A stretch of 64,000 nucleotides of DNA, taken from Pneumocystis sp. 'macacae'. Lineage: Eukaryota; Ascomycota; Pneumocystomycetes; Pneumocystales; Pneumocystaceae. Shown here piece by piece: positions 6,798 through 61,678 of this stretch. The stretch lies in NCBI GenBank assembly GCA_018127085.1, contig CM030724.1, positions 310,001 to 374,000 on the forward strand, given 5' to 3'. The notes under the pieces were generated by a model that saw only the letters and a list, made by a program, of their open reading frames with translations, searched no databases and was not told where the DNA came from. The first letter of the stretch is position 1. Each line of letters starts with the position of its first letter. Position numbers and translations under genes: made by a program.

Positions 6798-8818
6798 ATG
6801 GAAGAAAAACGAAAATCAGAGGGACTTTCAGGAGAAAATGTACATGATCTCAGATTTCGGAAGCGTTCAAGAATGGTTTTTTTTTCAAAAAAAAAAACAT
6901 TAGTAACTGTTTTTTTATATAGAATACACGTAGTACAGAAGAAATGCTTGAAGATGGTCGGAAACTTATAAAAGCAGTACTAGAAGCAAAGGATGAGACG
7001 TACGTATTTTTCATTTTACCTAGTGTGAAAAATTAAAGTGTTATTTCTATCTAGAGGCAGACTTATATCTGAAAATTTTATACGACTGCCTAGCAAGGTG
7101 ATATACACTAGCGTCAATGACATACCCACAATAACTGACTATACGCTTTTTCTTCAGAAACTTTATCCAGATTATTATGAATTGATCAAAAAACCTATTG
7201 CTTTAGACATGATCAAAGTAAGAAACCAGCAAAAAAGCAAAACAGCTTATTTTTTTAAAAAAGGAAAAACTCAAAAAAGGGGACTATGTGTCTATAGACG
7301 ACATACGCGAAGACTTTTTGCAAATGTGCAATAATGCAAAACGATATAACGTTACAGAAAGTCAAATTTATCAAGACGCACAGCAGATTGGAAAAATAAT
7401 CAAGTCATGGGGAGAAGAGATATCCTCATCTAGCAAAACAGAGGAAACAAAAAGACTCAAGATAGTCCATAAAAGCTCTCAAAAGAACGTGGCAGAGATC
7501 GCACTCGAGATATTGTCAGAACTAAAGGCCATGAAGGATCCATCGTTCTCTCTTTCTATCTCAAAAAAAAAACTAATGTTTCTAGCGGAAGAACGTACTC
7601 CGATATTTTTCTAGAGGTCCCTAGCAAAAAGGAATACCCTGAATACTACCAAATCATACAAAAACCCATGTCCTTTAACATTATAGAAGTCCTACCAATA
7701 CATGGGGCAATACATGCTGATTCTTCTAGAAAAAAATAAAAAAAGACCAATACTTGAAATTAGTCGACTTCGAAAGCGACATAAAGCTCATCTTCATGAA
7801 TGCAATGGTCTTCAACGAAGACGGCAGCCAGATTTCAAACGATGCAAAAACATTGCTCAAGTTCTTCCAAAAAAAAATATCCAAAAAAAAGGAGTCCTTG
7901 GACCAATCAGAAGACTCCGAGCACTCTCCTGTCTGTCTTCCGCAAAAGCAAAACAACCCTAATCCTTCCCAACAGCTCAGACTAAAGCTCAATGTCTCCC
8001 AGTCCTCTGCTCCCAAAATACGTCTTTCTATCGGACCCAAGTCCTCGACACCAGCCGACCTGCCGGACACCCCCAAGTCCATCATTCGACTCCCAATCTC
8101 CCCCCAAATAAAAGCCTCCCCCAAGCTCGAAGAAACCGACCCTCCCCCCCCCAAACCCAAAGCCCCCGCCCCCCCCCAGTCGGCACGCCCCGTCCCCCTC
8201 GCACCAATCCCAAAGCTGCCTCCTGCCCCACTCCCCTCCACTGCCCCCCTCTCCCCCACCCTTCCAAAACACCCACAGGACACCCCCTCAACCTCCCCCT
8301 CGCGCCTCCCCCGCTCTGCATCCGATCCCTCCTGGAAATGGCCTGATCCAAAAGGTACCCCCTCCCTGTTGCCCCGGCAACCCTCACTGCCAGACGCCTC
8401 CGACTCCCTCATCTCACACATCACCCTCCACACACCTCCCTTCCTCGAGGCCTCCCCGTCCTACCAGATCTCCATCCCCCCCCTCTCCTGTCCCTTCAGA
8501 GCCTCGACTGTCATCCTCCCCTCCGCCTACCACACCCTCCTCGTCACCCCCACCCTGTCTCCCTCGCTCCTCTCCAAGCCATACCACCTCGTCCTCGCAA
8601 TCAACGGCCTCAAAATCGCCCCAAACATCTCCTCAAACATGCTCCTCTCCCGCAGAGCCGACTCCCTCTTCCCAAAAAACACCTACGAGGTCAAGCTCGG
8701 CAAGGGCGTCAATGCAATCGAGTGCGTCCTCTCCCTCCCCCCCAGGGCCGTCGCCCGCACCCCCCCCGACGCCCCCGACAAAGAGCGGGTCGTCGTCTTT
8801 GTCTTCCTCTACACCTGA
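6798..8818 (+). CDS. RSC4: RSC chromatin-remodelling complex subunit Rsc4 (tandem bromodomain)
   Basis: Rsc4 reads acetylated histone tails for the RSC remodeller in the nucleus. The start is ATG 6798 (MEEKRKSEGLSGENVHD). Bromodomain 1 is built from FIRLPSKVIY, PDYYELIKKPIALDMIK and, after an intron, GDYVSIDDIREDFLQMCNNAKRYN. Bromodomain 2 has EVPSKKEYPEYYQIIQKPMS and DFESDIKLIFMNAMVFNEDGS. Both keep the YxxxIKKP/IQKP loop and the acetyl-lysine Asn (NNAKRYN, NAMVFN). A proline-rich linker of about 120 residues follows, then a C-terminal domain (YQISIPPLSC, NGLKIAPN, ECVLSL, ERVVVFVFLYT) like that of fungal Rsc4. The first exons are AT-rich like the neighbourhood. From about 7.9 kb the same gene becomes GC-rich and almost free of G on this strand, which makes much of the Pro-rich linker. 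Intron 1 has T-tract and A-tract arms that could pair. Confidence 0.82.
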
Positions 8819-9088
8819 CTCTTCATCCGCCCACCCGTGTGTCCCGTCCCACTCGCCCAGTGTCCGAGCACGTGTCTCCCGACCACACGCGTGCCCTACA
8901 TACGTATGTGTCCCAAATCTGCATACACGTGTGTCCTATATGTGTCTCCTATATGCTATGCGTGCCCTATACATGTGTCTGTACACCCGTGTGTCCGGTG
9001 CTTTGCCGCCACCCGCAGTCTCCATGCACACGGGTGCCCGGCGAGACTGCTCCACTGCGTGTCCCACTGCCTCCGGACTGCTCCACGC
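8819..9088 (+). repeat. Degenerate GTGTGTCC / TATATG repeat upstream of RRN3
   Basis: The spacer contains repeated CGTGTGTCC-like units (for example near 8837, 8917, 8929, 8940 and 8990) mixed with CCTATATG and alternating purine-pyrimidine runs such as TATACATGTGTCTGTACACC. It remains open in the RRN3 frame back to an ATG at 8837, but the translation is low in family similarity. I take it as the RRN3 promoter. Alternating CA/TG steps could favour non-B DNA. Confidence 0.5.
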
Positions 9089-10597
9089 ATGGCTTCGCTC
9101 GACCGCCTCTCCCACCACCCCTCCAGCCCCCCGCCCCCACACATCGCCGCTGCACTCCAGACCCTCCGCTCCCCCCACTCCGCCCCCTACCGCGACCTCC
9201 GCAGACAGTTCTCCTCAGATCCCCTGTCCACCGATGCACCCTCCTCTCCCGATCTCCAGCTCCTCCTCCTCTCCCTCACCCATCTTGCATCCTCCCTCGA
9301 CTCCCGCCACTGCGACCTTGTTGCCGACATCCTTGCCACCCACTGGGTCCACAGAGACGACGCCTTTGTCTCGGTCTACATACACTTCCTCGCAGCCATT
9401 GCGACCGCCCACTCCGGCCACATCCCCCTTATCGTCCGCATGCTCGCCCGCTCAATGGCACTGTCCTCTCCGCCCAATGCTGCAGACCGCATACACCTCG
9501 CTCTCCGCTCGATACTCGATCTTGCGCCTGCGTCCTACACATTTCTCTTCCGCATGCTCGCAGCGGAGTTCCCACACAAGACTGCCGATGCGGCTCTGCA
9601 GGTCGCATACCTGCGCAACCTCCTCCGCATCCCGCACTATGCACCAGCAATCTCTGGCCAGGTTCTCGGGCTTATTGTTGACCGCATCCTCCAGATAGAC
9701 GTATGTTGCAGCACCAGTGCGCCGCTGACGCTCCAGGTCGACATACAGACAGAGCTTGACGAGCAGGACGCCGCGCAGTCGCCTGCGCCGTCCGGCAGCA
9801 GTGCGGACAGCGCGTCTGTCGACGGCGCAGCGGCGCCAGTCCAAGACATGCTGGCGGCGCTTGACGCAATGCTTGCGGCGCTGCTCGGCGACCTTGTGCC
9901 GGTCTTTGCGCAGGCTGCGCCGCGCAGCACAGCAGACGCAGTCTTTGGACACCTGCTTGGCGCATTCGAGGATGTGGTTCTGCAGACGTTTCGGTCGCGC
10001 TACACACAGTTTGTTGTCTTCTGGGCAGCACAGACAGACTGTGCATACACAGCACGCTTCCTGCGCGCCGTCCTCGGCCGCGCACTCGATGCTGCGCAGC
10101 CGCATGTTGCGCGGCGCGCAGCCTGCGCATACATTGCGAGCTTTGTTGCGCGCGCAGCGTCTCTGTCGAGAGACGCGGTCCGGCGGACAGTCGACGCGCT
10201 GTGCACATGGACCGCACAGTTCCTGGACGAGTGGCAGGAGAGCGAGGGAGGACACCCGGGTGTCCAGACGTTCTATGTGGTTGTCCAGGCGCTGCTGTAC
10301 ATCTTCTGTTTCCGGTGGCGCGAGCTGGCAAACGACGACCCGCAGGACGGGGCATGGCTGGCAAGCCTGGGGGCGCTTCAGCGGGCGACGGCGTCGGAGC
10401 TTGCGCCGGTGGGGCGGTGCTCGGCGACGGTTGTTGCGCAGTTTGGGGCGACGGCAGAGCGGGTCGGGTTTGTCTGGGGCGGGGCAGCAGGCGGGACAGG
10501 CGTGCGGGTCGACGCCTACTTCCCGTTCGACCCGTGCCGGCTGGCAGAGAGCCGGAGATTCATCGACCCGGTGTACAGGGAGTGGGAGGACACGTGA
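9089..10597 (+). CDS. RRN3: RNA polymerase I transcription initiation factor Rrn3 (TIF-IA)
   Basis: Rrn3 bridges RNA polymerase I to its promoter factors and so sets rRNA output. From ATG 9089 (MASLDRLSHHP) the protein is about 490 residues after removing a 36-nt intron at 9701-9736. Hallmarks in order: LQLLLLSLTHLAS, VHRDDAFVSVYIHFL, EFPHKTADAALQVAYLRNLL, LGLIVDRILQIDVDIQTEL (across the intron), QTFRSRYTQFVVFW, ASFVARAASLS, FYVVVQALLYIFCFRWREL and the end FPFDPCRLAESRRFIDPVYR. These are the conserved HEAT-repeat motifs of Rrn3. It is shorter than budding-yeast Rrn3, mainly at the N-terminus and the acidic loop. The intron (gtatgt...cag) is a multiple of three and has no stop, so an unspliced reading would add 12 residues in the middle of a conserved strand. 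Third codon positions change from C-ending to G-ending along the gene. Confidence 0.9.
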   Translation: MASLDRLSHHPSSPPPPHIAAALQTLRSPHSAPYRDLRRQFSSDPLSTDAPSSPDLQLLLLSLTHLASSLDSRHCDLVADILATHWVHRDDAFVSVYIHFLAAIATAHSGHIPLIVRMLARSMALSSPPNAADRIHLALRSILDLAPASYTFLFRMLAAEFPHKTADAALQVAYLRNLLRIPHYAPAISGQVLGLIVDRILQIDVCCSTSAPLTLQVDIQTELDEQDAAQSPAPSGSSADSASVDGAAAPVQDMLAALDAMLAALLGDLVPVFAQAAPRSTADAVFGHLLGAFEDVVLQTFRSRYTQFVVFWAAQTDCAYTARFLRAVLGRALDAAQPHVARRAACAYIASFVARAASLSRDAVRRTVDALCTWTAQFLDEWQESEGGHPGVQTFYVVVQALLYIFCFRWRELANDDPQDGAWLASLGALQRATASELAPVGRCSATVVAQFGATAERVGFVWGGAAGGTGVRVDAYFPFDPCRLAESRRFIDPVYREWEDT

Positions 10598-10730
10598 GTG
10601 CACGTGGCATCACATGACTGCACGTGGGCGCACGTGATGGCGGATGGCGCACACGTGAGCGCACGTGGGAGCACGTGCACACGGGACAGCCGGGCGGAAG
10701 GGATGGGGGGGCGGTAACGACACACACGTG
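10591..10730. promoter_or_regulatory. Phased array of CACGTG (E-box) sites
   Basis: Eight perfect CACGTG sites start at 10591, 10601, 10621, 10631, 10652, 10662, 10672 and 10725, with a CACATG variant at 10611. The spacing is 10, 10, 10, 10, 21, 10, 10 bp, so most lie on one face of the helix. The first overlaps the RRN3 stop codon. The last ends one base before the ATG of the FAR1-type gene. CACGTG is the core site of bHLH factors such as Cbf1, Pho4 and SREBP types. Here it most likely forms the promoter of the downstream gene. The array also reads as a 10-bp tandem repeat. Confidence 0.75.
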
Positions 10731-10731
10731 C

Positions 10732-11433
10732 ATGGAGACAGACAACACACACACAGTCGACGAGGACAGCTTGGGGGGAGTGGTCCACGGACACTATGGG
10801 CTGCACGGGGTGGATGCGCAGAGTCTGATTCCGCAGCCGCAGGTGGGGGTGCACTATGCATCGCCGGAGGACATCCGGGCGATGCTGGATGCATATGCAA
10901 AGTTCAAGGGCTTTGCAGTGTCGGTGCGGGCGTCGAACCGGATTACATACCGGTGGCAGTGTGTGCATGGGGGGAAGTACCGGAACACACGGAACCTGCC
11001 GGCAGAGATCACGGTAGACCCAGCGCTGGTGGCGGATCCGACGGCGCCGCGGCGGCAGCGGAAGCAGACGACGAAGCGGACAAACTGTCCGTGGCTGGTG
11101 CGGGCGGGGCTGAGCCAGACGGAGCTGTGGAAGATCACGAAGGTGGTGGATGAGCACAACCACCGGCTGTATCCGGACGACCCGACGGTCTACCATCAGA
11201 ACCGGCCGATGACGAAGCAGCGGGTGCAGCGGAAGAAGCCGCGGAAGCCGAGTGCGCGGGTTCTGGAGCAGCAGATGGTGGGTGGGGCGGGGCTGGGGGG
11301 GATGGACTCGACGCTGAAGATTATATCACTTGTTCCGCAGGACTTTGAGCAGGGCATGATGGATCCCGAGCTGGACATTGGGCTGGACGAGTCTCTGATG
11401 CGGACGATTGGGACGCAGACGGAGGAGCTGTAG
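10732..11433 (+). CDS. FAR1/WRKY-GCM1-type DNA-binding protein (putative transcription factor)
   Basis: A 233-residue protein from ATG 10732 (METDNTHTVDEDS). Residues of about 45-150 look like the FAR1-type zinc domain: EDIRAMLDAYAKFKGFAVSV, then RWQCVHGGKYRN, a basic stretch (RRQRKQTTKRTNCPW) and ITKVVDEHNHRLYPDD. The C...C...HNH pattern (WQC, NCPW, EHNH) is that of the WRKY-GCM1 fold, found in some fungal regulators and in plant FAR1 and MULE-related proteins. No transposase domain follows. The rest is a short tail ending TIGTQTEEL. It lies directly downstream of the CACGTG array. An upstream in-frame ATG at 10624 would only translate the array. Codons are strongly G-ending. The target genes are unknown. 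Domestication from a mobile element is possible for this fold but is not shown here. Confidence 0.62.
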   Translation: METDNTHTVDEDSLGGVVHGHYGLHGVDAQSLIPQPQVGVHYASPEDIRAMLDAYAKFKGFAVSVRASNRITYRWQCVHGGKYRNTRNLPAEITVDPALVADPTAPRRQRKQTTKRTNCPWLVRAGLSQTELWKITKVVDEHNHRLYPDDPTVYHQNRPMTKQRVQRKKPRKPSARVLEQQMVGGAGLGGMDSTLKIISLVPQDFEQGMMDPELDIGLDESLMRTIGTQTEEL

Positions 11434-11490
11434 GGCAGGGCTAGGACTAGGGTTGGAGGAGTGGGTGAAGAGTGGGTTATCTATGGCCAT

Positions 11491-13620
11491 TTATTCGCTA
11501 GTTCTATGTGTATTTGTGGTGGGGGGTGTGGATGGGATATTTTTGTCGGCACGGGTTTTTTTGATTTCGAGGGAGAGCATGCGGAGGTTGTCCAGGAGGG
11601 AGGCGGCCTCGTCGTATTTGCGGCGGCGGCTTGCATCTCTGATCCAGTTCTGGACAAGCAGGCGCTGTTCCAGGAGGATCTCGAGTTTTTGCTTGGTGTG
11701 TTCGGAGTGTGTCTCGGGCAGGGTGCAGAGGGTCTGTGGAGGCGTGGTTGCGGCGCCGGGGGTGTGTCTGAGGCAGGAGAGAGAGCGCAGGGAACACATG
11801 TTTTGCTGGAGAAATCGGCCTGCCTGGAGGCGGACGGCAGTCTGGAGTTCCTGAGCGGTGTTGGATGCAGCGGGCATCTGGGAGATGTCCCTTGAGATCT
11901 TGTCGTATTGGGAAAACATGGCGAGTATTTCTTTGCGGGTGTGAGCAGCGGCATCGATGGAAGCCTGGTCTGCGCTGTCGCTGTTTTTTCTGTGGCGCGG
12001 ATTAAGCCGTGAGCCGGCAAACAGGCCTAGCTTACTTGAGATGGTTGAGACGGGCTTCGAAGTCGGACACCAGTTCCTCGATTCTGCGTCTAAGCACAGA
12101 CAGCTCCTGGTGCATATGGTCAGTATTTGGGAGGAGCGGGAAGAATCGACTTTGTGCAGGATGGTGACTTGTTGAGGTTTTAGAAGGGAGCGGTAGAACT
12201 CCTTTCTGGAAAAGACAATGCGTTTGCAAGTGCTGCAGACACGTATGGATGTGTCTGGGCGAGATGCATTGTTTGCTGGGTCTTTATGCGCTAAACATGT
12301 ATAAGTATGGAGAAAGGATGGAGCAGAATACCTGTTTCAGCGTCAAGGAGCGTATTTGAGGAACGCTGGGTCTTAAGCCGAATTTTTGAGGAGCACGGAG
12401 ACCTTAGGCCATCACATACAATTTTTCCGCAAAGTCTACAGTGATGTTTTCTATTCGTATAATTAAAAGGATACCTGGGGAGTTAGGAGTAAGAAACCAA
12501 GCAGGAGGCAAAATTACTTGCAAAGTGGACAATGAGTGACGGATAGGTTGTTTTCCCATGATACGACTGTCTGTTCCAATGCCCTTTTATGGGGTATGAG
12601 AGGAGCAAAAGGTCTAAAAAAAGAGTTGAGAATAGGCTCTTTGGCTGAATTCGACGCGAGAAGGTTTGTAAGCTATACATGTGTTACTTGACGAGTCCGA
12701 ATGCACAGAGATTACTTTTAAGAGCCTTTTTTCGAGTCTGTTGGCATAAAGATTAATTTTATGCACTGCTTGTGTGCGGTGTTGTTTAAATTCTGGAAAA
12801 AAGTCTATAATAGGCCCTAGGGAATGAATTTAGGATATGAAATACTGGTTATGTTTTATTCAGAGAGTTACCGTTTGTATCCATGTATCCATCTCTCTCT
12901 TCATAGCAATTTTTGCAGACACGAGACCATATGCCATTCAAAGGGTCATGTCGAGCCTCCTTAGACAGCTTAATCTAGAAATGTTACGATAAGAAAAGCT
13001 TCAAATATTCATTTACTTGATACATTGTATGAATATTGCAAAATAAATTTCCGCATTTTCCGCCTTTCAACAATTATTACATTCAATCAATGTATACATG
13101 GGTATATAGGCATCAGGGACGATGCACATAACATATACATGATACAACATATATGTAGTTGTGTATATGTATTTGTATCTCTCTAGAATGCCCATGTACT
13201 ATACACAGATACATACAATTCACAATATCCGTTTTGGCTGACAGAGGTTTTTTGCATAATGCTCTTGAACATATTGCATCTTCTGTTCCTATTTTCCAAT
13301 GTTCTTTTGTTACTACCTCTATCTCTTTGCCCGTTTCGTCGCAATTGACTTTGCTTTCATTCAATTCAAATACCTCAGACCTGTTTACAATGTTTTGTGT
13401 TACCGCAACAGATGCAAGGTGTTTTGCCTCGTCTATACACTTTTTAAACCATGATTTTACTGTTTCTTGTTTCTCCACTGCTTTGAAATGAGCCTCATCC
13501 AAGTGTTGATTCAGTCTATGTAAATCTGCCTGGAAATTCCTCCATTAGCTATTATAAAGCACAACTCCTTTATTCAATCCAACTTACTAACGACTTATTG
13601 CAAACAGGACATCGTAACAT
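11491..13620 (-). CDS. VAC1: Vac1/Pep7 (rabenosyn-5 homologue), FYVE-domain endosomal tether
   Basis: Vac1 binds PI3P, Rab5/Vps21 and the SNARE machinery for Golgi-to-endosome traffic. From ATG 13620 the N-terminus is a C2H2 finger (MLRCPVCNKSL, then LNQHLDEAH). Next comes a first zinc unit: ICSRALCKKPLSAKTDIVNC, KCGNLFCNIHTMYQ and RVCKNCYEERDGYMDTN. After LYANRLEKRL comes the FYVE domain: CPLCK, YTNRKHHCRLCGKIVCDG and SIRVCSTCKR, with the R(K)HHCR PI3P-binding core. Coiled coils and a C-terminal Rbsn-like helix (KYDEAASLLDNLRMLSLEI) end at 11491. The order finger - atypical zinc unit - FYVE is that of Vac1/Pep7. Ten or so short introns are present. The 5' half is AT-rich and the 3' half lies in the GC island. 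No missing ligand was noticed. Confidence 0.88.
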
Positions 13621-20851: not shown

Positions 20852-21208
20852 AAGGCCTTAAATACAATTTTTCGCACTTCTTTTTATAAATTATAACTTC
20901 TCTTTCTCAAAAAATTATTCTAGACCAGTTTGAATGCTCGAACATGTAACTTTTATTTAATATTCTTCAAGTATAATCTTTCATCAATTCTTCCACTTTT
21001 CTCTCTATGATTCCTAAAAAAACATCTACTTAGAAACCACAAAAGACTACCATTCAGCCTCCAAACAATATCCTTCAAAATTCTGTCTCCCTCATAACTG
21101 TACTTTCTATTAATACTGATATCTCAAGTTTTTTCTTAGACCTTAGGATTATAAAACTGTTTTAGGGTTAGGTTATAAGATTTCAGCTCAGACCTACCTC
21201 TCGAGACC
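20852..21208. promoter_or_regulatory. Divergent promoter MRPS9 / ATP19 with a TTAGGGTTAGG element
   Basis: This spacer separates two nuclear genes for mitochondrial proteins. TTAGGGTTAGG at 21162-21172 lies 37 bp before the ATP19 ATG. In other fungi telomere-type TTAGGG sites inside promoters are bound by Tbf1/Teb1-like factors; that use here is inference. A pyrimidine-rich tract (20950-21130) precedes it. No gene is seen. Confidence 0.5.
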
Positions 21209-21495
21209 ATGGTTTATGTGATTGCTGGACGAGCAGTTAAGTCTGAGCATGTAAGTAAATATATCTACCCGTCTTCTACCATCAACCATTTTTTAGATAG
21301 CAATCGGGACAATTCTCATTATATGCGGTGTAGTTGGCATGAATTCCTTCTTATATTTTACATAACTAAATATCCGCAGGTCATGCCATGCACCGTGCCA
21401 ATAAACGAGCTGCTCTTCTAAGAGCTAGCGACCCGCCAATTCATGCCAGAAGCCCCCAAGAAGAGGCCTTTATCCGGTATGTTGCTGCTCATTAA
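21209..21495 (+). CDS. ATP19: ATP synthase subunit k (Atp19), three short exons
   Basis: A small inner-membrane subunit that helps dimerise mitochondrial F1Fo-ATP synthase. Exon 1, 21209-21250: MVYVIAGRAVKSEH. Intron 21251-21296. Exon 2, 21297-21327: IAIGTILIICG, matching the LAIGTLG membrane helix of the family. Intron 21328-21379 (donor gtgtag). Exon 3, 21380-21495: HAMHRANKRAALLRASDPPI, then HARSPQEEAFIRYVAAH and stop. The C-terminal PPI(N/H)A.S..EE.FI pattern is that of fungal subunit k. Total 62 residues, close to the 68 of budding yeast. None of the three frames is long unspliced, so it is easily overlooked. The exon 2 donor is the weakest part of the model. Confidence 0.82.
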
Positions 21496-22091
21496 ACGCT
21501 CTAATATCCATTCAGAAATAAACTTGAAGCATTCAAGCATGAGTTAAGCCGTTCTGCATAGTTTTTACGAGCATCTTTGATTTTTTGTCTTTGTTGCTTT
21601 GTATTAAACAGGACTTCGATGCTTTATATATTTATATTCTAATTGCAGAATGCGTTATTGGATATTACATAACATGTTTATTCTTCCCTATTGCCTAGAG
21701 ACTGTTTCTCAGACGCATATATTCTGGCTAAGTACACATATATCCTGCTTTCATCGCGCATATACTTAGTATTTTCACTCATATATCCCACTGTCTATTC
21801 TCACGCTCATTCGACTCCCATCTTCCTCACCTCTTCCTTTACTGCTGTCTACTGCATTCATCTCCCACTTAGCTTTGTATATGTGCCTGTCCATCGCATA
21901 TATGCGTCCTATATGCGCACTATATGCTGCCAATCTTCTTTTTCAATATCGCTTTCCACTCGGCTGACCCAAATCGGAGTCGGCCTTAGGCCGCTGGGTA
22001 TCGGCGGGTGCAGCGAGTTGACAATTGCTCTGGCATCCGCAGCTCAAAGGCTGCGTAACAGCGACAGTCTGTAAGGAGTGGAGGAGTACAG
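21496..22091 (+). promoter_or_regulatory. Spacer upstream of INO80 with CATATATGCG-type repeats
   Basis: About 600 bp. The 21710-21935 stretch repeats ACGCATATAT, GCGCATATAC, CGCATATATGCG and CCTATATGCG in pyrimidine-rich DNA. CAATCTTCTTTTTC and a GC-richer patch follow before the ATG. No open frame with family similarity is seen. An unseen 5' exon of INO80 cannot be excluded. Confidence 0.45.
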
Positions 22092-25000
22092 ATGAACAAT
22101 GTTCAGAGTGGATTCAATGGAACAGCACTTATGACACAAATAGAAGTAGCAAAAAAGCTAGAAATAGAGCAGCAGCAGTTTCAGAACGGAAAGCGTATAC
22201 GGTCGGATACAGTAATAGAAGGAGAAGCAAAACGCAGACGATTTGAAGAAACTGATGAAGAGGAAGAAAGAAGCATATATAGTGCAGATATGGCACAAGA
22301 AAATATACGTTTTGAAGAAGAACAACGTTTACGACGTGAAATGATAGAAGCTGCAGAGAAGGAACGAGTGCAAATGCAACAGATGCGGATTCATGCACTG
22401 CTTGTGGCACGGCTTGAGGCACGGGTGCGGCGTGCACAGATTCAACAGCAACAGAAAGAAGCAAAAGACATAGATATATGCATGGGTTTATCGGAGGAAG
22501 AGATTACATCAGACTCAGATGATGGTTTATATGGGCCGCTGGAGCGGCCGGCAAAGCGGGTTAAGCGGATTCCGCGGCCAATGGAGGAGCAAGCAATAAT
22601 AATTTGGCGGGAAATGACTAAGAAAGAGATTCCTAAAGTATTTAAGCTGGTACAGCAAAACAATGTAACGCGTGCAAGCAATGCGCGGAAGACAGCAGTG
22701 CTTTGTTCAAAGGAGGCACGGAGATGGCAGTTCAGGACGCATAAGAGTGTGAAAGACATGCAGGCACGGGCAAAACGTGCAATGCGGGAGATGCTTTTAT
22801 TTTGGAAGCGGAATGAGCGAGAAGAACGTGAGCAGCGTAAGCGTGCAGAGAAGGAGGCGCTTGAACGGGCAAAGCGTGCAGAAGAGCAACGGGAAGCTAT
22901 GCGACAAGCACGAAAATTGAATTTTCTTATTACACAAACGGAGCTTTATTCGCATTTTATTAGTCGAAAAATAGCTAATAACGAGGGGTCTCCAACGGCG
23001 GAAAATGGAACATCCACGATAGATCAAGATGTGTCGGAGCATAATAATGCGATAGAAAATTTATTGGATACAAATGTTTCTGAACGTCCTCTTTCGATTA
23101 AAGAAGTTGATTTTGATGGTGTTGATGATGAATCACTTCGAGAAATTGCAATCAGAAATGCACAAGAGGCTGTTGCATTAGCCAGAAATCGAGCTGAGCA
23201 ATTCAATATGGTTCAAACGAATGGTGAAATAAAAAATGAACAAGACTCGTGTAAAAATATCTTTGACGGTAGTGAAATGAATTTTATGAATCCTTCATCT
23301 CTTAAGAATATCACAATTAAACAGCCGAAAATGCTTCAATGTCAACTTAAAGAATATCAGCTTAAAGGACTCAATTGGCTTGTCAATCTATATGAACAGG
23401 GTATTAATGGTATTTTAGCAGATGAGATGGGTTTGGGCAAAACTGTACAGTCGATTTCAGTTATGGCTTATCTAGCAGAAAATCATAATATATGGGGTCC
23501 ATTTTTTGTTATTGCGCCTGCGTCAACGCTTCACAACTGGCAACAAGAGATTACACGTTTTGTGCCTAAATTAAAAGTATATCACATTTTTGATTTCAAT
23601 GACTCTGATTCTCTATTAGGTCTTACCTTATTGGGGAAATGGAAAAGATCGGAAGATTCTGCGTAAGTTTTGGAATAGAAAACAGCTCACTTATACAGAA
23701 GATGCACCCTTTCATGTCCTTGTTACATCTTATCAACTAGTTGTTCAAGATGCACAATATTTTCAGCGAATAAAATGGCAATATATGATTTTAGATGAAG
23801 CACAGGCGATTAAAAGTTCTAGTAGTTCAAGATGGAAAAATTTATTGGATATGAAGTGTCGAAATCGTTTACTTTTAACAGGGACCCCGATCCAAAATAC
23901 AATGCAAGGTATTCTTTTTTTGATTTTTTTTTAATACTTAATATCATTAGAATTATGGGCTTTATTGCATTTTATTATGCCAAGCTTGTTCGATTCTCAT
24001 GATGAATTCAGCGAGTGGTTTTCAAAAGATATTGAAAGTCACGCTCAAAGTAATACATCTTTAAATGAACGTGCGTGAATGTTTATACTTAATTTTTAAA
24101 TGTTTATTTGATATTAGAACAATTACAACGGCTTCATATGATTCTTAAACCTTTCATGTTACGACGTGTTAAAAAACATGTTCAAAGTGAATTAGGGGAA
24201 AAAATTGAATTAGAAATCTACTGTAATCTTTCTTATCGTCAAAAAACTTATTACAGAACATTACGTGAAAAAATTTCTATTGCAGATATTATCGAAAAAG
24301 CAACACAAGGTGGCGATGAAAATGTAGCAAGTCTTATGAATATCGTTATGCAATTTAGAAAAGTATGTAATCATCCTTATTTATTTGAAAGAACAGATGT
24401 TATATCGCCTTTGTGTTTCGCACAATGGGCAGAGACACCTTCATTAATGCGCGAAGGATCTAATCTTTATATACCATATAGTTTGAAAAGTTTAATTAAA
24501 TTCAAAATACCGAAACTCATATATCGTGATGGTGGTATTTTAAACATTCCTGGACCAAGTTCGTCTTTTGGATTTCGTACTAAATATTTTAATTATATAA
24601 TGAACATATTCAATACAAAATACATTTACGATTCTTTATGGAAAGATTGTTATGGTAAGTTCATGTTGTATTTTCTATAGAAAATATATTTAATAATGAA
24701 ACTAGATTCCCCATTTTCATGGTCGTATTTTATCGGACTTTCACCTTCTGAGCTTTTTCAATCGTTTCATCATAATATATGGAAAAAAGCTCTTGATATT
24801 CAAACAAATCCTAATAAAAACTATTTGGAAAAATTACGTATATTGTATCAAAAAGATATTCAAATATCTAGTCGTTTGATGTTTTTAATAAGAGAGTTTG
24901 ATGAGCATACTCCATCTCTGAGCATAACAAACGAATGTGCTATGTACAATTTATGCAATGTGCCTCGTGACGTTGTTATTCAACAATTACTTCATCGGTT

Positions 25001-53600: not shown

Positions 53601-54423
53601 CGACAATGATGTCGGCGGCGCCATGCTGCTTTTTATTAGTTATTCTTTTATTATATCTATTCCTTTTACTTGTAAATACCATATCACACAAAAAACATGC
53701 CAAACAGTTCTCATCCTTCATCCAAAAGTCCTTTCCAAGTCTTCCTGTCCGAAGCCTCTCAAGTATTACTGAAATTGACCGTTCCCGGGTCCCTGGTTCC
53801 CCGCTCTGCGTTTGAACCATCTCCGAATCACTTGATATTTCATGTTGCAAAGTGTATCCAGGTAATCGGTTTATAGATACCCCAAAAGGCGAAAAATACA
53901 TGTCATCCTGCATAAAATACGTAGAAATACTCTTTGCTGTCTCCGTTTCCCCACGTTCCATGCAAATCCCGTCTTGAAGCACTGAAACTCGATCAACTAC
54001 TGGTCCAAGACCTGCATTTGCATTCCGTAGGAAAAGCTTTGTAAGTTTCCTAAGAGACTGAGAGAAAACAGTCCCTGTTTCACCTGCTGCTATGCCTGAA
54101 GCCCCACGCAGACTCCCTGCAGCGTTTGTATTGCTGTTTACAGTGCAGATGTTGCTTGGGCCCGTATATATATTATCTGGAAGCACATACATCCCTGTTT
54201 TAAGTGCATACATCTCACATTGCTTGTCTGTTTCTCTTGCTTCTAGATAGTTTGCATCATCAAGAACTGTATATGAGCCTGAAACATCTGATTTATTGCT
54301 GGAGGCATTAATAGTCTCTTTTTTAGGCTCATCAAATGTATTAAAGCTTGTAGGGTTTTTATCTGTGTTTTTCTTTAATTTTTCTGTGTTTTTTCTGCCA
54401 AAAAAACGGGACAAAAGGCCCAT
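47694..54423 (-). CDS. FAB1: Fab1/PIKfyve, PI3P 5-kinase with FYVE and CCT domains
   Basis: Fab1 makes PI(3,5)P2 on endosomes and vacuoles. ATG 54423 ([15 protein letters not shown]). The FYVE domain is assembled as [38 protein letters not shown] and RVCNRC. Two introns (53629-53669 and 53553-53601) flank a 27-nt exon (53602-53628) that encodes the AWRRRHHC core. The CCT/TCP-1-like domain follows ([38 protein letters not shown]). The Cys-rich CCR region contains [15 protein letters not shown] and [12 protein letters not shown]. The C-terminal PIP5K-like kinase comprises [60 protein letters not shown] and [20 protein letters not shown]. The last exons end near 47694; the final residues are uncertain. 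No kinase motif is missing. Length is about 2,000 residues, as expected. Confidence 0.95.
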
Positions 54424-54471
54424 TTAATAGCGAACATATATACGCGCTGTAAGCAGCCAACCATTTAGTCA

Positions 54472-54818
54472 CACGTGATATAGACTTTCGATCACGTGAT
54501 ATCTCATGGTCACGTGCAGAGGAATAAAAAGAGTTGATGGTATATATCTCTGTAAACACACAATACAAATACTGAGAAGCTCTGAAAAGTACACAAAAAA
54601 GACTACAGCAGTGAGAGTACTATGTGTAGAAGGCATTTTTTAGATCTATCAAAGACACATCTGTACGTATATGACACATATGCCTATTTCACATCCAAAA
54701 GACAAGACTGTATGCACTTCAAGCATCGTGTTGTAAGCAATGTTGTATAGTAACAATGGGCATCTGACAAACCATGCATTCAGAGTCTGTGGAGTGTCAC
54801 GTGACAAACTGTCACGTG
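54472..54818. promoter_or_regulatory. Five CACGTG sites in the FAB1 divergent promoter
   Basis: CACGTG occurs at 54472, 54493, 54511, 54798 and 54813, most as (T/G)CACGTGA or GTCACGTG. The first three lie 50-95 bp upstream of the FAB1 start. The last two lie 30-50 bp upstream of the neighbouring start at 54850. Each divergent gene thus has its own close cluster. The spacer 54424-54849 holds no other gene. Confidence 0.6.
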
Positions 54819-54849
54819 CATAGAGTGCGAGTGGAACGCAGAAGAAGCG

Positions 54850-56243
54850 ATGAGTGGTATTTTAAAAAAATGGATACGCGGAAAAGTACGACAATCACTG
54901 GCAACGATGGCAGAAAATCCAGTGCGGCTTGCACAGAGTCAGAGAGTGCAATTGATGAAGGTAAGTAAGTGATTTTAAGGGCCAAAAGAGCTAAAAATGA
55001 TAGTTTCTTACATATGAAAAACCGGTGTTTGCAGAGGTTTCTGATATGGAAACATTTATGTGCTGTGAATTTACACAGGAATGCGTGGAGGCGTATCAGA
55101 AGTAGGAACTTTTTATCTCGACGTTGTTTAACTAGGTCCAGTGAATTTGGAAAACGCTTTACACAGATCAAAGGAGCATATTTGACTTTAAAAAATATAG
55201 AACTTAGGATTTATGAGGCAGAAAGCTTTTCAGTTTCAGTGCGGTTGGTTGTTCCACAGATCCAGTTTCTAGGTGGAGAAGGAGAGGCAATTGTTGGTCA
55301 TCCGGTGTTTTTCACAGAACATCAAGAGATACGTATGCTACTGCGATCACCACAGGTCCAAGGGTACTTTTTTTGTTCAATGGCCTTGTTTCATTTTCTT
55401 AGCATGGAATTTATAGATTTCTTTGGCCTCGGCTATCAGTAGAGAAAGCTGGTGAAGGTATGATGATCCAAGAAATCATTGGGATTGATGAGATGATTCA
55501 GGAATCAATGTCCTTTCGGAAACAAAAGTTTGGGACGACAAAAATGAATCGTCGGTATATGTTATGTTCAGCATAGAACCAGTTGGGTACTGATGAAGGA
55601 TAGAATGAGTTAATTAGAATCCCAGTATCGATCGACGATACTAAAAAACGTGGATTTTTGTTAGCACATACAAATGAAGATGAGCGACATAAATCAGGAA
55701 AAAAACGGCAAAGAGCTTTGCATCCTGGCTGGAGGGTTTTTGTCAAACTTATTTATTCTGTTTTGATTCGTTATGATAGGGATTTTCTGAAATTACATAT
55801 AAAGATTGTATTATTAGTGATGAGCAACTGAAAATACTAAAACGGGATGACTGTAAGCATGCATTAGTGTTGAGAGTCTCTCTTTATAAGAAATTAGCTT
55901 GGTATCCTCCGATAGATATGTTCCAGCAAGATGTTTTTGCGTCTGACAAAACTGCCACGCCGATATCAAAAACATACCAAAAAATGGTTCTTTAATAAAA
56001 TTTCACTCGCTTAAGTTCTGATATTTGCAGACATATTCTCCAAATTGTAGTAACAACTTGAATTCCTCACCAGAAAGCGTGTTTTCATGGGAAGAATCTC
56101 CTGTATTGAACAAAAGTTCCACTTCTATTATTGAAACAAAAAGTAGTGGTGAAAAGCCGATCTTTTACATGGAAAAGAAAGAATTTTTTAGTGACAACGA
56201 TACTCTTCCTCCAAGCTCTTCACCCGTCACATATAATCCTTAA
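54850..56243 (+). CDS. Spliced gene of unknown function, conserved-looking
   Basis: I do not recognise the family. The start at 54850 gives MSGILKKWIRGKVRQSLATM and ends QLMK; intron 54961-55034 (gtaagt...gcag) keeps frame into RFLIWKHLCAVNLHRNAWRR. A basic, Arg/Trp-rich stretch leads to FGKRFTQIKGAYLTLKNIEL and a strand-rich part (SVSVRLVVPQIQFLGGEGEA). More exons read HGIYRFLWPRLSVEKAGEGI, NVLSETKVWDDKNE, EPVGIPVSIDDTKKRGFLLA, ALHPGWRGFSEITYKDCIIS and ALVLRVSLYKKLAWYPPIDM. A Ser-rich tail ends PPSSSPVTYNP. The starting ATG at 54870 reads into a stop unless a 34-nt intron is forced, so 54850 is better. Roughly 370-390 residues, mostly predicted beta plus a disordered tail. CACGTG sites lie just upstream. 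A nuclear regulator is possible but not shown. Confidence 0.6.
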
Positions 56244-56948
56244 TTACAGATTTTAATCGAAAATATTTCATTAGAATTCCAATATTATTATCTTTAACAA
56301 TACTTTTGTATCCATTTAAGTATTTTTTGGAAAAACCTTTTTCTGGTGCTTCCTATTTCTTCAGAATTTTAAACAAAAGATGTACCCACCAACAAAAGTA
56401 GAACACCTTACCCTTGAAAACTAATAAGCATTGCTGGACTTTGCTTTTTTTACTAAATATCCAGGTAGTGTATCTGATCTATTGACAACATGTTTATCGA
56501 TATATATTAGATCTTCTTCTGACTCAATATCAGAATTAATTGTTTATTTCTTCTCAAAATTCATTTCTACATCCTATTTAACACTTCATCTGATACTATA
56601 GTCTCTACAAAGCTTCAAAAATTGTTATTTTACTCTAAATTTTGATCTTATATCATCTTGATAAAATATTATCTAACTATTATCCAATTAACCATTTTTA
56701 GCCCTGGAATTTGTTCTCACTCAACATTTCAGTCCCTTAATAGCCTTTCATTAACCCTGTCATCACTTAATTTTATTTAATTTTCCCTCAAAAATCTCTC
56801 AGTATTCTCAAAAACACCAACATACTAGTGCCTCCTCAGAATTGTCCATCCACACATCCATCTGTACTAATTTCCTTAATTAATACTGCTCTATCACATG
56901 GCATCCTAAACTCACTGCTCCTTCACTATTTCCTTGGTCCTCCTCCTC
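56244..56948. other. Convergent spacer, pyrimidine-rich toward MHO1
   Basis: About 700 bp between two gene ends. 56700-56948 becomes C/T-rich on the plus strand with CCATCCACACATCCATC. No open frame with similarity, RNA gene or clear repeat is seen. Confidence 0.5.
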
Positions 56949-58139
56949 TTAGTACGTCACCACCCCTGCTGCATAACTCACACTACTATCTTTCACCGTC
57001 CTGCACCGACTGCTTTGTGTATAGGCTATAAATCGGAACCTCTCATGTATTTTTGCCTTCTCTAGTGCACACAACATCACACTGATTGGGTGCCTGGTCT
57101 CGTCAATTACTTGCTCCACACTTATACACAAACCGGCCGCAAATTGTGTTCCTCGTTCTTGATAGATACTCTAGAAATCCTCTGTGGCTTCCCTGCTCGA
57201 TCTTCTCTATTCCTTCCCGGTCGCACCTCTCAATCGACTTATAGATTGGCTCACTCTCCAATGGCCCCTCTTCCTTTGACAATCGCCGACCCTTTCTGCC
57301 TGCCTCTGCATAGTATGTATACGAGAACCTCTGTCCCCTTTATTCTTTGTATTTCTCTTATCTATTTATTCTCTCCTTACCAATGGCAGAAATCTGATGA
57401 TACTATAAACCTATTCCTCGTATCTCCAAGATATGGCGCAAGCAGTTGTCCGTATTGCATCTCCTGGTCTGCAGTAATTGCTCCAACAAGAATAGGGACA
57501 ATCTTTGCAGCTGGTGACCATCTGCTGCAGTCAGCAATCCTTAGTAGACCCTTCTCAATATCATACTCGGTGAGTAGATATCGGATAAATGGAAGCTGCA
57601 GCTCAATACTGTGTTCATCCTCGTCTGTTTGGAGATCCATTCGTGCAAAGGCTCCAGTGGACTCAAGTGAAGCAATAACTGAGTTGTCAGAAAGAAGAAC
57701 GGCCTAGAAAGCTCTCAATGGCCCAAACTTACCTTCAGTGTCGAGCGGCAGTGTGCCAAGAGGAGTCTCATAATCAGTGCACGATGAAAGTGCACAGTGT
57801 CGGAGGTCGACATGGTGTGCAGGGCCGAGTATAAATACACGTTCTCTATAGTCTGAGAGTGCAGACAGAAACAGCAAGGACTATACACGTCAATCCAGGC
57901 AACAGCAGCGTACCCGCGGCCAGCAGTCGCTCCGCTGTATTCATAGCCTGCATGCCTGATCAGTCAGCTTGGGTCAGTGCAAAGCCATAATCAGACGGTG
58001 TAATAAGAGCCTTTCCTGTTCCTTGGGTACAACTTTCTCCGAGAAATGTCTTGAGTGCTGCCCTCAAAGCGGGGACTGAACTAGGATACCAGGTGCCGGC
58101 GTGGGTTGCTCGTCGATGCATTGCTGTGCAGCGGGCCAT
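56949..58139 (-). CDS. MHO1: Memo1/Mho1 family protein
   Basis: Memo1 proteins have an LigB-like dioxygenase fold and bind metal; they affect cell motility and redox state. The start at 58139: [20 protein letters not shown]. Spliced core: [19 protein letters not shown] (metal-binding HAGY), [20 protein letters not shown] (HH), [32 protein letters not shown] (HS.E.Q.PF), [65 protein letters not shown] and YTQSSRC ending [13 protein letters not shown]. All conserved His/Asp/Cys positions seen in the family are kept. Some introns are very short: 29 nt (gtaagt...ctag after PLDTE) and 33 nt. GC is higher than in most of the window. Confidence 0.92.
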
Positions 58140-58698
58140 CTGTCGGTATTCTATGTCTGAATCGGGTGTAGAAGGGTCTCAGGAAAAGCCACGGCCATGG
58201 TAAGCAGGTGGTAGAAGCAGTAGGAGCTGACAGGCAGTTGTGCATGTCCAGAGACACGGAGAGCACGGGACGAGTGTCTTGCACTGGGAGGGGACGCTGA
58301 GGGTGACTGCCGAGAGTTGATTGAGGCACACCGCAGGTAGACAGTGGCATTATGGCAACTCTAACGATAGATGTATGGCACAGTATGGATACCGTGTGTA
58401 GGGTTACAGGCACGGGGAAGAGTGTTGTAGAGGGTCAAGCAGAGTGCAGTAGAGGCAATGAAGCATTGATACTAGGGTTTTCATAGGGATTCCGTAGGGT
58501 TAGCATTAGTGTTGTAGGGTTGCAATCGTAGGGTTGTAGTCGAGGACTGCACTGGGTATTACTGGATATTGAAATTTGGTTCTGCAAATTCTAGCAGTAG
58601 AACTGTTTGGAATATGCTAGAATGTGCCATTAATGTCCAGAATTACAGTTTAACTGTGGTTTTGGAGCACATGTTATTTTCGTTGCTAGATGGTGGTT

Positions 58699-58727
58699 GT
58701 TGCCATAGCATCTGTTGCCGTGGCTTC
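58699..58727 (+). promoter_or_regulatory. Two tandem RFX/X-box-like sites
   Basis: GTTGCCATAGCATC (58699-58712) and GTTGCCGTGGCTTC (58714-58727) each match much of the X-box GTTGCCATGGCAAC. They are spaced 15 bp, about 560 bp upstream of the MHO1 start. Confidence 0.35.
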
Positions 58728-59480
58728 TCTCTAGGCACTAACTACCGATCTATCGTATCCACTAGTGTTGACAGTGGGATTGACAGATTAGGTTAGAAGT
58801 GGTTGCATTTGGGTTACACTGTATAGGATTGTGTCTGTGCTAAATATGTATTTAAGTTTGATCCTATTTCTGTACTTTGACTTATGTGCATATGCGTGGT
58901 TATATTTAGTTTGTGGTTATGTTCTGTGATACGAGTATGCTTGTATAGTGCTCTGCAACATATGCATATTTAGCCCCGACCCAGAAACCCACAGCACTCC
59001 TGGTGCATGTAAAGGTATGTGCTAGGGTTAAAGTTAACAGAGTAATAATTTGAGTGAAAAGTAGTTATGTTTATATTACTGCATACATTGCACTTGTGTA
59101 TATACCTGTGGTTATACTTGTAGTTATGCTTATTTAGATTAACTGCAGTTAGAGAATGCATTAATCGGTTAGGGTCAGGGCTGGATCAGGGTTAGGGCTA
59201 GATATGCATATCTTACACTGTGCAGGATACATGCACATTAGCTTACAGGAAACAGTCCGTGCAGCACAGCCTGTCTTGAGAGGAATGGTGCTCTGCTATT
59301 AGTTTCAAAATGCAGTACAACAAAGACAGATGAGGCATTGAGGCTGCATTGATGGTTCTGGCTAAATGTGTCGCTGGCGTAACCCACCACTCTGCGTGTC
59401 AGATTAGGGTTGATGTTTGCTAGATGCCTCCAGGGTTAAGTTTGGGTCATAATTGCAGGGTTAGGGCTTTCAAATATTTA

Positions 59481-59600
59481 TCATGCTTAATGCTTAACAA
59501 TAATATTTAATGAGTAATGCGTAATGAGTAATGCCTATTAAACAATGCCTTAGAAGATAATGCCTACAGATAATTCCTAACAGATAATGCTTAATAAATA
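59481..59600 (+). repeat. Imperfect TAATGC-type tandem repeat
   Basis: At least nine copies of (T)AATGCxTA or AATGAGT-type units occur in about 120 bp (TAATGCTTAA, GTAATGAGTAATGC, ATAATGCCTA). Copies are 8-17 nt apart. Function unknown. Confidence 0.6.
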
Positions 59601-59698
59601 CACTAATAAATACATTCTACAGTCCTATAGAAGTTGAACAGGCTTATTGAGTTGTCTGCAATTACATCTCACCACGAACATGGCGGCAGCTCAGCTAG

Positions 59699-61678
59699 CT
59701 AAGACAATCTAGTCAACCGACCAGAGTTTAGGTTTTTCTTTGAACGGCTAGGGTTAGGGTTAGGTATGTGCTTGAGCCAGAGACCAGAACGACATAGAAG
59801 TTTCCAATGGGACCAAAACCAAAAAACAACGAAGCAGAAGAAGCTTAGTGCCATGTTTGCAAGCACCCACAGATGAGGAAAACGTTGTGGCGGGGGAACA
59901 AGAGCTTCAAGCAGGTGGATTAGAACAAGAAGAACGTAAGAACCCTGGAAGAAGATAAAAATAAAAAAAACTGGGAAGAATGACAAACCATGTGGATAAA
60001 TGTTTCAAAGGATCCAAGGGTTCCGGGAGGATGGAAGAGAAATCCTCCAAGCCAGAGCCAGTAGATGAGAAGAGCAACATACTGAAGGAGGAGACCGTCG
60101 CGTTTGAGGAGGGGCCACATACTAAATAGTTAGAAACAGGAAAAAATACAGAAGAAAGGGGAAATGGTGGAAAAATAACCTAAAAGTACCAAATGTGTTG
60201 AGCCAGCTAACCCAGGCCTTTGTGTTTCTATTGGGAGTGGCGAGGAGAATTGTAGCAGGCATGAGAGGGAGGAGAATAGACTTTTCGTGGACCTGGAAGG
60301 AGAATAAGAAGAAAGCAAATGCGCAGGAAAGAAGTCCCCAGGGAAGAAGGTCTTTTCTCGGCCGGATGAAGAGGATTAAGCAGGAAGGGAGAATGGAAAG
60401 GCTGGTGACGACGAGACTGAAAAAGATTAGAGATAAAGAGGAAGGAAAAACATACCTGAGCTTCAAAAGATAGGAAGCAGAATATCTCTGTTTGAACTTG
60501 ACGAAGGTGTTGAGGACACACCAAGCATTTGCAACTTTGTCTTCCCAGAGGCCGCGCTGGAAAGGAAATATCCTATAGAAACATTGAAGAAGAACAGGAT
60601 ATCCTCCAGACAGAAGAAGAGGGAAAAAGACAAGTGCGAATGCAAAGAGAGTAGAGGCGGTTATTAAGAAAAAACGGGAGAAATCGAGCCGAGGAAAGAC
60701 ACAGAGACCAAGAAGATAGAAGAAAATGAGAGGCGAGTAGTAGAGAGACATTTGTTTAAAAGAGATAGAAAAAACAAAGAAGATGCAACCGAGAACAAGT
60801 TGATCGTTGATGAAGTAGGTCAGAGAAAGGAGCGAAAGGCCCAACATGACGTTGTTATATTGGAAATGGCCATGATCAATGAGAATAAGAGCGGGCTGAA
60901 GGAGAATGAGTGTGACGGAGGAGTACTAAAGAAGTTATGGAAGAGAAAGAGGACTAAAGAGTGCTACGCTGTTTAAAGTATTACCTCCTTTGAGTCGTCT
61001 CCAGTAGCGTACAAAACGAATGACTGCAGGGAAATATATGATGAAATCGCAAACAATGACCGTCATACGCATATAGAATTTCAGGTCTTGAGTCTGTAAA
61101 CCGTGAGAGGTATCTAAAGCAAACCATTTAGGCTCTATAAAGTGACCACTATGTTTCGTAAATGACACTACTGTAGATGAAGAGAATGGACATTTTCCCA
61201 TATATATAAGACAAGTAGGCACTCAAAGGAGGGTAGTCCAGCCCCCACCATTCCGCATTGTGGAAATACCATTCTTTGATCGGCAGATGTAAGGTAATTT
61301 CCATCCAATGTCTTTGTGCTTCAAAATCGCCATATTTTTTATCGCCACTACTTCCTAAAGATTGCTTAGAATCAATGGGTTAAAGGTGGATTCTTCACCA
61401 GAAAATGTTCCAAGAGCTATCAATGCTCTTACAATTATCATAAAGAGTGTAATGACAGGAAGAATTAAAAACCGAAAAGAGCTCCATTTAACAACATATA
61501 ACATCCAGTAAATGGGGTATGTACTCTCTTCTGAGTCGTTCTTATTATTTATTTCCATTTCATATCGTCTTAAGCTTTTTCTTTGACTATCCATAATTAT
61601 GTCTTGAAGATTAAGTATTTTCGAGCCCAAACGCTGAATAGAAAAGCAAAATAAAAGAGTAATATAAAAGAACCACAT
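59699..61678 (-). CDS. ALG6: Alg6-type dolichyl-P-glucose alpha-1,3-glucosyltransferase
   Basis: Alg6 adds the first glucose to the lipid-linked Man9 oligosaccharide in the ER membrane. The start is either 61678 or, more likely, 61594 ([15 protein letters not shown]). The lumenal loop has [13 protein letters not shown], then [20 protein letters not shown] and [14 protein letters not shown], the family signature. Next come [20 protein letters not shown] and the multi-span region with [32 protein letters not shown] and [18 protein letters not shown]. The C-terminal exons have [15 protein letters not shown] and [15 protein letters not shown]. The tail [20 protein letters not shown] is encoded partly by CCTAAC repeats at 59748-59764. 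Alg8 is related, but GEESP.. [14 protein letters not shown] and VHEKSIL favour Alg6. The coding strand is very pyrimidine-rich. Confidence 0.88.

What the first reader, a model, noticed from the sequence alone, without database searches (positions are those of the whole stretch)
7900..12100. A 4-kb GC-rich island in an AT-rich genome, crossing four ordinary genes
GC rises inside RSC4, stays high through RRN3 and the FAR1-type gene, and falls inside VAC1. The borders lie within genes, so the change is not from an inserted element. The proteins are intact orthologues, though the Pro/Ala-rich Rsc4 linker and the Ala/Arg-rich Rrn3 parts seem driven by composition. A local process such as GC-biased gene conversion at a recombination hotspot would explain this (inference).
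Basis: partly seen in the sequence, partly recalled or inferred. Interest (0 to 1): 0.75.

Follow-up and report, generated by a model that had tools for sequence, protein, structure and literature searches.

The report
Mirror-image GC islands in Pneumocystis macacae
An AT-rich lung fungus of macaques carries scattered patches of roughly 3-6 kilobases turned GC-rich in a mirror-image way, with extra C left of a midpoint and extra G right of it, which looks like the long-term scar of DNA breaks repaired at the same places again and again.

Summary
The island is real: window 7974-12172 has GC about 0.6-0.67 against about 0.3 around it, across RSC4, RRN3, a FAR1-type and a VAC1-type gene of Pneumocystis sp. 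'macacae'. Its main feature was missed: a mirror-image strand asymmetry. On the + strand the left half gains C (0.46) and hardly any G; the right half gains G (0.38); the switch lies inside RRN3. I read 13 strong islands, this one included; all 13 run C-rich to G-rich (six picked by GC alone, five from word clusters already pointing that way, one predicted). Genome-wide word listings agree (13 of 14 two-strand clusters perfectly ordered). Fourfold-degenerate sites show it whichever strand the gene is on, so coding, codon choice and transcription do not explain it. Ordinary GC-biased gene conversion raises G and C alike. Best reading: a stable double-strand-break hotspot, repaired so that C wins over A and T on the 3'-ended single-stranded tail on each side. 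Breaks, recombination and polymorphism were not measured; most weaker GC peaks lack the switch; human hotspots lose C on that strand. A replication-linked process and mutagenic gap filling are the main rivals.

The parts
7974..12172 (.). GC island (400-bp smoothed GC above 0.5)
7974..9792 (.). left half: C 0.46, G 0.17, A 0.18, T 0.20 on the + strand
9793..12172 (.). right half: C 0.24, G 0.38, A 0.18, T 0.20 on the + strand
9542..10042 (.). skew switch (minimum of cumulative G-C at about 9792), inside RRN3; proposed centre of break formation (inference)
7730..8818 (+). RSC4, last open frame (end of bromodomain, Pro-rich linker, Ig-like domain); fourfold sites inside the island C 0.71, G 0.07
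9089..10597 (+). RRN3; fourfold sites left part C 0.57 G 0.16, right part C 0.22 G 0.49
10732..11433 (+). FAR1-type DNA-binding protein, 86% identical to P. canis and 81% to P. murina; fourfold sites G 0.78, C 0.05
11494..12336 (-). VAC1/Rabenosyn-type open frame (exon limits not settled); fourfold sites of 11494-11919 read on the + strand G 0.66, C 0.08
8819..9088 (.). RSC4-RRN3 spacer, C 0.39 G 0.22
10598..10731 (.). RRN3-FAR1 spacer, C 0.26 G 0.42; eight CACGTG words at 10591-10730
21101..23500 (.). weaker GC peak with the same skew switch
53601..55700 (.). weaker GC peak with the same skew switch
56601..61500 (.). GC peak up to 0.53 with the same skew switch near 57.8 kb; telomere-like words at 59167-59764

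Best explanation
The island is the accumulated footprint of a stable double-strand-break (recombination) hotspot centred near window 9792. At a break, 5' ends are resected, leaving 3'-ended single strands: the + strand to the left, the - strand to the right. Shown: on exactly that strand, on each side, C is high and both A and T are low over about 2 kb, while G on it is hardly changed; this holds in genes of either strand, at fourfold sites and in spacers, at a set of places in the genome. Inferred: the tail strand pairs with the homologue, and mismatches in the heteroduplex are resolved so that C on the tail wins. One simple rule gives this: base-excision repair restricted to the tail strand, with a MutY-type enzyme removing tail A opposite G and a TDG-type enzyme removing tail T opposite G, both replaced by C. 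The result is a C-biased, strand-resolved form of biased gene conversion, not the ordinary G-or-C bias.
For: Mirror polarity in 12 of 12 fully measured islands, also when split at the geometric middle; in 11 of 12 none of 2000 block shuffles reaches the observed jump, in the twelfth 2 of 2000 do. A 13th island, fetched because only G-rich words were listed there, had the predicted C-rich left part (its left edge was not reached and one 250-bp bin on the left was +0.09). Fourfold sites, + strand bases: left + genes (n=1220) C 0.53 G 0.16; left - genes (n=769) C 0.60 G 0.10; right + genes (n=1254) G 0.63 C 0.11; right - genes (n=299) G 0.62 C 0.09; outside C 0.14-0.16, G 0.14-0.17. RRN3, whose Pfam match spans the switch, flips within one gene. 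Genome-wide words: 13 of 14 two-strand clusters in perfect order, 65 pairs against 3. Size fits: in human hotspots 1-2 kb of single strand lies left of the break on the forward strand and right of it on the reverse strand, and mutation is strand-asymmetric in the flanking 2 kb (PMC7615360, section 4 and Figure 1 legend). Domains of Spo11 type, MutY type and the UDG superfamily are in this genome. Mating and meiosis genes are present and transcribed in three Pneumocystis species (PMC4764891, passage).
Against: No break, crossover or polymorphism data. In human hotspots, as I read section 4 with the Figure 1 legend, the tail strand loses C and A, whereas here it gains C, so the geometry matches but the direction does not. 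Weaker GC peaks do not generally show the switch: on C5 14-198 kb none of 8 peaks outside the big island jumps by more than 0.1, though three in the window do. Telomere-like words at C5:150746-150786 lie on the side where their orientation does not fit. Where centres lie relative to promoters was not analysed systematically. Which UDG-family locus, if any, is TDG-type was not settled.
Confidence: 0.6

Rival explanations
1. Mutagenic gap filling at the same break hotspots: the strand re-synthesised opposite the tail misinserts G opposite T and A, so the islands reflect mutation, not conversion.
For: Same geometry and polarity; [quoted passage not shown]
Against: No Y-family polymerase domain (IMS, IMS_C) was found in this genome, though exons split by introns can be missed and the control genomes in which the tool found the domain are prokaryotes. 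Spread of changes through constrained codons would need a very high rate (inference).
Confidence: 0.17
2. A replication initiation site with strand-biased mutation near the origin; the - to + skew jump is that of a bidirectional origin.
For: Polarity is the one expected at origins (recalled); cumulative skew minimum inside the island in 12 of 12.
Against: Skew is gone by about 3 kb from the centre in the composite and has the same sign on both sides from 2 to 50 kb around the C5 149-kb island (the only island tested at that range); an origin should polarise a longer stretch. A rise of GC by about 30 points is not a known origin trait (recalled).
Confidence: 0.13
3. Ordinary strand-symmetric GC-biased gene conversion, the skew being a by-product of coding or chance.
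For: High GC, gene-blind borders, composition-driven amino-acid changes.
Against: The skew follows side and not gene strand at fourfold sites and exceeds block shuffles.
Confidence: 0.05
4. R-loops or transcription asymmetry at bidirectional promoters.
For: Outward G-rich strands resemble divergent CpG-island promoters (recalled).
Against: The window centre lies inside RRN3; Pfam-matched genes on both sides share one strand in the C7 174-kb island (both -) and the C13 234-kb island (both +).
Confidence: 0.04
5. Inserted or foreign DNA, contamination or assembly error.
For: Sharp compositional change.
Against: Orthologous genes run across the borders; the FAR1 protein is 81-86% identical to other Pneumocystis; similar islands on several contigs.
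Confidence: 0.01

Closest known systems
GC-biased gene conversion clusters of gerbils (PMC7403616 and PMC6573468, passages seen)
   Same: Local, recent, extreme GC rise that overrides protein constraint and is attributed to recombination
   Different: There GC skew is used to mean high GC; no mirror-image strand asymmetry around a centre is in the passages seen, and the word asymmetr- does not occur in PMC7403616
Strand-asymmetric mutation at human PRDM9 hotspots (PMC7615360, section 4 and passages seen)
   Same: Asymmetry of opposite sign on the two sides over about 2 kb, tied to the resected strand
   Different: Human: rare variants, C>N and A>N on the forward strand. Here: long-term base composition with C gained on the tail strand, visible in one genome
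Strand-biased mismatch resolution in single-strand annealing (PMC9001825, section 7 and passages seen)
   Same: Repair outcome can depend on strand
   Different: There the strand wins whatever the base; here one base on one strand wins
Pneumocystis regional centromeres (PMC10327204, abstract and passages seen)
   Same: A few kb long, span active genes
   [quoted passage not shown] murina and P. carinii; islands are GC-rich and there are at least three on C5 and two on C4

Membership tests
GC-biased gene conversion (gBGC) island | local GC rise regardless of gene borders, also at synonymous and non-coding sites | tested here: met
GC-biased gene conversion (gBGC) island | strand-symmetric: G and C both favoured over A and T | tested here: not met
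   at fourfold sites only C is raised on the left and only G on the right
GC-biased gene conversion (gBGC) island | raised recombination and favoured segregation of the GC allele | not testable with these tools
   no crossover or polymorphism data
Double-strand-break hotspot repair footprint | opposite strand asymmetry on the two sides, reaching about 2 kb | tested here: met
   size compared with PMC7615360
Double-strand-break hotspot repair footprint | symmetric central zone of about 100 bp | tested here: inconclusive
   250-bp bins aligned at the skew minimum cannot resolve 100 bp
Double-strand-break hotspot repair footprint | Spo11 breaks or Dmc1/Rad51 binding at the centre | not testable with these tools
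   only a Spo11-type domain in the genome was shown
Double-strand-break hotspot repair footprint | same direction of base change as human hotspots (C and A lost on the tail strand) | tested here: not met
   C is gained on the tail strand
Replication origin skew domain | upward GC-skew jump | tested here: met
Replication origin skew domain | skew continues over the replicon beyond the centre | tested here: not met
   no sign change from 2 to 50 kb around the C5 149-kb island (one of 13 islands)
Pneumocystis centromere | GC below genome average | tested here: not met
   islands about 0.5-0.76 GC in 250-bp bins against published 3.9% lower GC

The most novel reading that the evidence does not exclude
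A strand-resolved, single-base biased gene conversion: repair of recombination heteroduplex in Pneumocystis macacae favours C on the 3'-ended tail strand only, strongly enough to rewrite about 2 kb on each side of fixed break sites, so that the break map of a fungus without continuous culture can be read from one assembled genome.
Probability: 0.42. Interest if true: 0.88.

Novelty: new variant of a known kind. Interest (0 to 1): 0.8.

Why it matters
Whether biased gene conversion comes from mismatch repair, base-excision repair or DNA synthesis is an old open question (recalled), and genomes normally show only its strand-symmetric sum. Here the two sides of the proposed break are separated and the favoured base is named, which restricts the enzymes that could do it. 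It also offers a testable map of recombination sites in a lung fungus for which reliable continuous culture does not exist (PMC10327204, abstract), and shows how a repair bias can push a conserved protein such as Rrn3 far from its relatives.

Tried and rejected
Gene orientation or codon choice as the cause of skew: rejected by fourfold sites. Centromeres: rejected on published GC. Replication polarity: not seen at long range around the one island tested at that range. Telomere-like words as independent proof of polarity: CCCTAACC/GGTTAGGG is in excess (57 copies in the 12 islands, read in the C-rich orientation, against a median of 3 for its 168 anagrams; 2 copies in 221.5 kb outside), but the fit of 58 of 60 to the skew is about what base composition alone would give (my estimate, no call), so I do not count it. 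The scan for weak islands used local maxima, several of which fell on shoulders of strong islands; it is a rough negative. A shared motif was looked for only by word counts over whole islands, not at the centres. P. jirovecii orthologues of RRN3 and FAR1 were not among the listed hits (120 of 394 listed, all 5), so conservation of the site in the nearest relative is unknown.

Independence of the tests. Of the 13 islands, the window's was given; six (C4 282k, C5 149k, C8, C11, C14 152k, C14 580k) are all the interior clusters in the listing (runs of 20 G/C letters; 100 of 110 places listed); five came from word clusters that already showed the expected order and are not independent; one was a prediction for its left half. 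In one search I used 47 of 96 listed places, 44 of 100 listed (121 found) and 78 of 100 listed (169 found), leaving out contig ends and pure C runs.

Pfam scans took 30 open frames: 16 had a match, 14 none. Fourfold counts used 15 of the 16 (an F-box/LRR frame lies outside its island); they are open frames, not settled coding sequences. The zinc-finger match (L024) is below Pfam's cut-off. In the LSD1-like frame (L022) and in TTI1 (L028) the domain matches begin on one side of the switch, so coding on the other side is not proven there. I cut the first 100 codons from the LSD1-like frame.

Absence from print: the Pneumocystis searches and hotspot-skew searches listed no paper whose title or start of abstract describes such islands in Pneumocystis; 'GC-rich' and 'GC skew' do not occur in the main text of PMC10327204, 'GC-rich' and 'GC content' not in that of PMC7940399. 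Most subscription papers are not held, so this is weak.
Full report
What was claimed. A 4-kb GC-rich island in an AT-rich genome crosses four genes, with borders inside genes, and might be due to GC-biased gene conversion.

GC is 0.58-0.67 from 8001 to 12000, against mostly 0.15-0.40 elsewhere in the window (200-bp detail). With a 400-bp smooth above 0.5 the island runs from 7974 to 12172. Pfam confirms RSC4, RRN3, FAR1 and a Rabenosyn/VAC1-type protein. The organism is Pneumocystis sp. 'macacae': an AT-rich window gene is identical to PMAC_002489 on a contig of 556,021 bases, the length of the window's contig.

The + strand is C-rich in the left half (C 0.46, G 0.17) and G-rich in the right half (C 0.24, G 0.38), and the sign changes near 9792, in the middle of RRN3. 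RRN3 is on the + strand throughout, and its Pfam match spans the switch; its fourfold-degenerate sites read C 0.57, G 0.16 left of the switch and C 0.22, G 0.49 right of it. FAR1, on the + strand, has G 0.78 at such sites, and VAC1, on the - strand, has G 0.66 when read on the + strand. So side decides and gene strand does not.

It is a genome-wide kind of object. Runs of 20 G/C letters occur in six interior clusters besides contig ends (100 of 110 places listed). All six are islands with GC mostly 0.6-0.75 and the same C-to-G order. Five more, taken from word clusters, also have it, but they were chosen where the words already pointed that way. One further place, fetched because only G-rich words were listed there, had the predicted C-rich left part (the left edge was not reached and one left bin was +0.09). 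With the window's own that makes 13 of 13 read. In the 12 measured in full, lengths are 2.7-5.9 kb and the order also holds when the island is split at its geometric middle. Shuffling 100-bp blocks reached the observed jump in 0 of 2000 for 11 islands and in 2 of 2000 for one. Across the genome, C-rich and telomere-like words on opposite strands are in perfect order in 13 of the 14 clusters that hold both strands, 65 against 3 pairs (the places used are told under Tried and rejected).

Anatomy. In the composite of 12 islands, C on the left is 0.43-0.46 from -1500 to -500 while G is 0.17-0.22; on the right G is 0.42-0.48 from +250 to +1250 while C is 0.19-0.22; A and T both fall from about 0.33 to about 0.17; beyond about 3 kb the values are those of the flanks and the skew is gone. 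At fourfold sites, pooled over 15 open frames with a Pfam match (one below the cut-off), left halves have C 0.53 (+ genes, n=1220) and 0.60 (- genes, n=769) with G 0.16 and 0.10; right halves have G 0.63 (n=1254) and 0.62 (n=299) with C 0.11 and 0.09; outside, C is 0.14-0.16 and G 0.14-0.17. Two islands (C4 282k, C5 477k) show two successive switches about 1 kb or so apart, as if two centres overlapped.

Lineage. Rrn3 of P. murina, P. carinii and an unnamed relative do not look composition-driven; P. macacae Rrn3 is only 42-43% identical to them, whereas an AT-rich control gene is 55-56% identical to P. murina and P. carinii and 77% (67% in another record) to P. jirovecii. At columns where the three relatives agree, P. 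macacae has lost mainly I, K, S, N and E and gained mainly A, R, V and G, with C leading in the first two codon positions of replaced sites on the left (C 53, G 34) and G on the right (G 93, C 57). FAR1 kept 81-86% identity, so its high GC is mostly synonymous. The gain at RRN3 therefore belongs to this lineage, or to it and P. jirovecii, whose orthologues were not among the listed hits.

How it probably works. A double-strand break is followed by 5' resection; in human hotspots the surviving 1-2 kb of single strand is the forward strand left of the break and the reverse strand right of it (PMC7615360, Figure 1 legend and section 4). In the islands it is this strand that has gained C, on each side, over about the same distance. 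Gain at the cost of both A and T, with little gain of G, is what would follow if tail A opposite G and tail T opposite G were both changed to C:G, but A or T opposite tail G were left alone: reactions of MutY-type and TDG-type glycosylases (recalled), confined to the tail strand. A MutY-type gene (HhH-GPD match at C11:222690 and NUDIX_4 match at C11:223502), two UDG-superfamily loci and a Spo11-type domain are present; no Y-family polymerase domain was found. This whole step is inference. Synthesis errors on the opposite strand would give the same picture, and polymorphism data are needed to tell them apart.

What speaks against it. There are no break, crossover or SNP data. Human hotspots appear to lose C on the tail strand rather than gain it. 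Most weaker GC peaks lack the switch, apart from three in the window. Origins of replication share the polarity, though not the short range.

Verdict. I rate it a new variant of a known kind: a GC island probably linked to recombination, with a mirror-image, single-base asymmetry that my searches did not find described for Pneumocystis.

Noticed in passing
L022-L031; C5:148588 and 150746-150786; window 59167-59764: Telomere-like words (CCCTAACC / GGTTAGGG) are in strong excess in 11 of the 12 measured islands, none in the window's main island: 57 against a median of 3 for 168 anagrams, 2 in 221.5 kb outside; some lie inside the TTI1 open frame. Could be insertions by telomerase at breaks, or binding sites; unexplained.
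   Followed up: partly
window 10591-10730; C5:150376-150424; L023 4396-4421: Clusters of CACGTG words in islands (8, 5 and 3 copies), many about 10 bases apart; a possible site for a bHLH-type factor (recalled).
   Followed up: no
L022 (C4 about 280-284 kb), L029 (C5 about 475-479 kb): Two-peaked islands with two successive skew switches.
   Followed up: no
whole genome: No Y-family polymerase domain (IMS, IMS_C) found by exon-wise search; may be a true loss or missed exons.
   Followed up: partly
L028 596-4039 and L031 3557-5569: TTI1 and a TEL2-type protein, partners in one complex (recalled), both lie in islands; may be chance.
   Followed up: no
C3:307, C4:553170, C8:480288, C10:472865, C13:6510, C15:374632, C16:10594: A shared GC-rich 20-mer family near contig ends (length of C15 not seen), C-rich on the + strand at left ends and G-rich at right ends.
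   Followed up: no
window 9089-10597 and 10732-11433: No P. jirovecii orthologue of RRN3 or FAR1 among the listed hits, although the control gene has one; a GC-rich gap in that assembly or annotation is possible.
   Followed up: no
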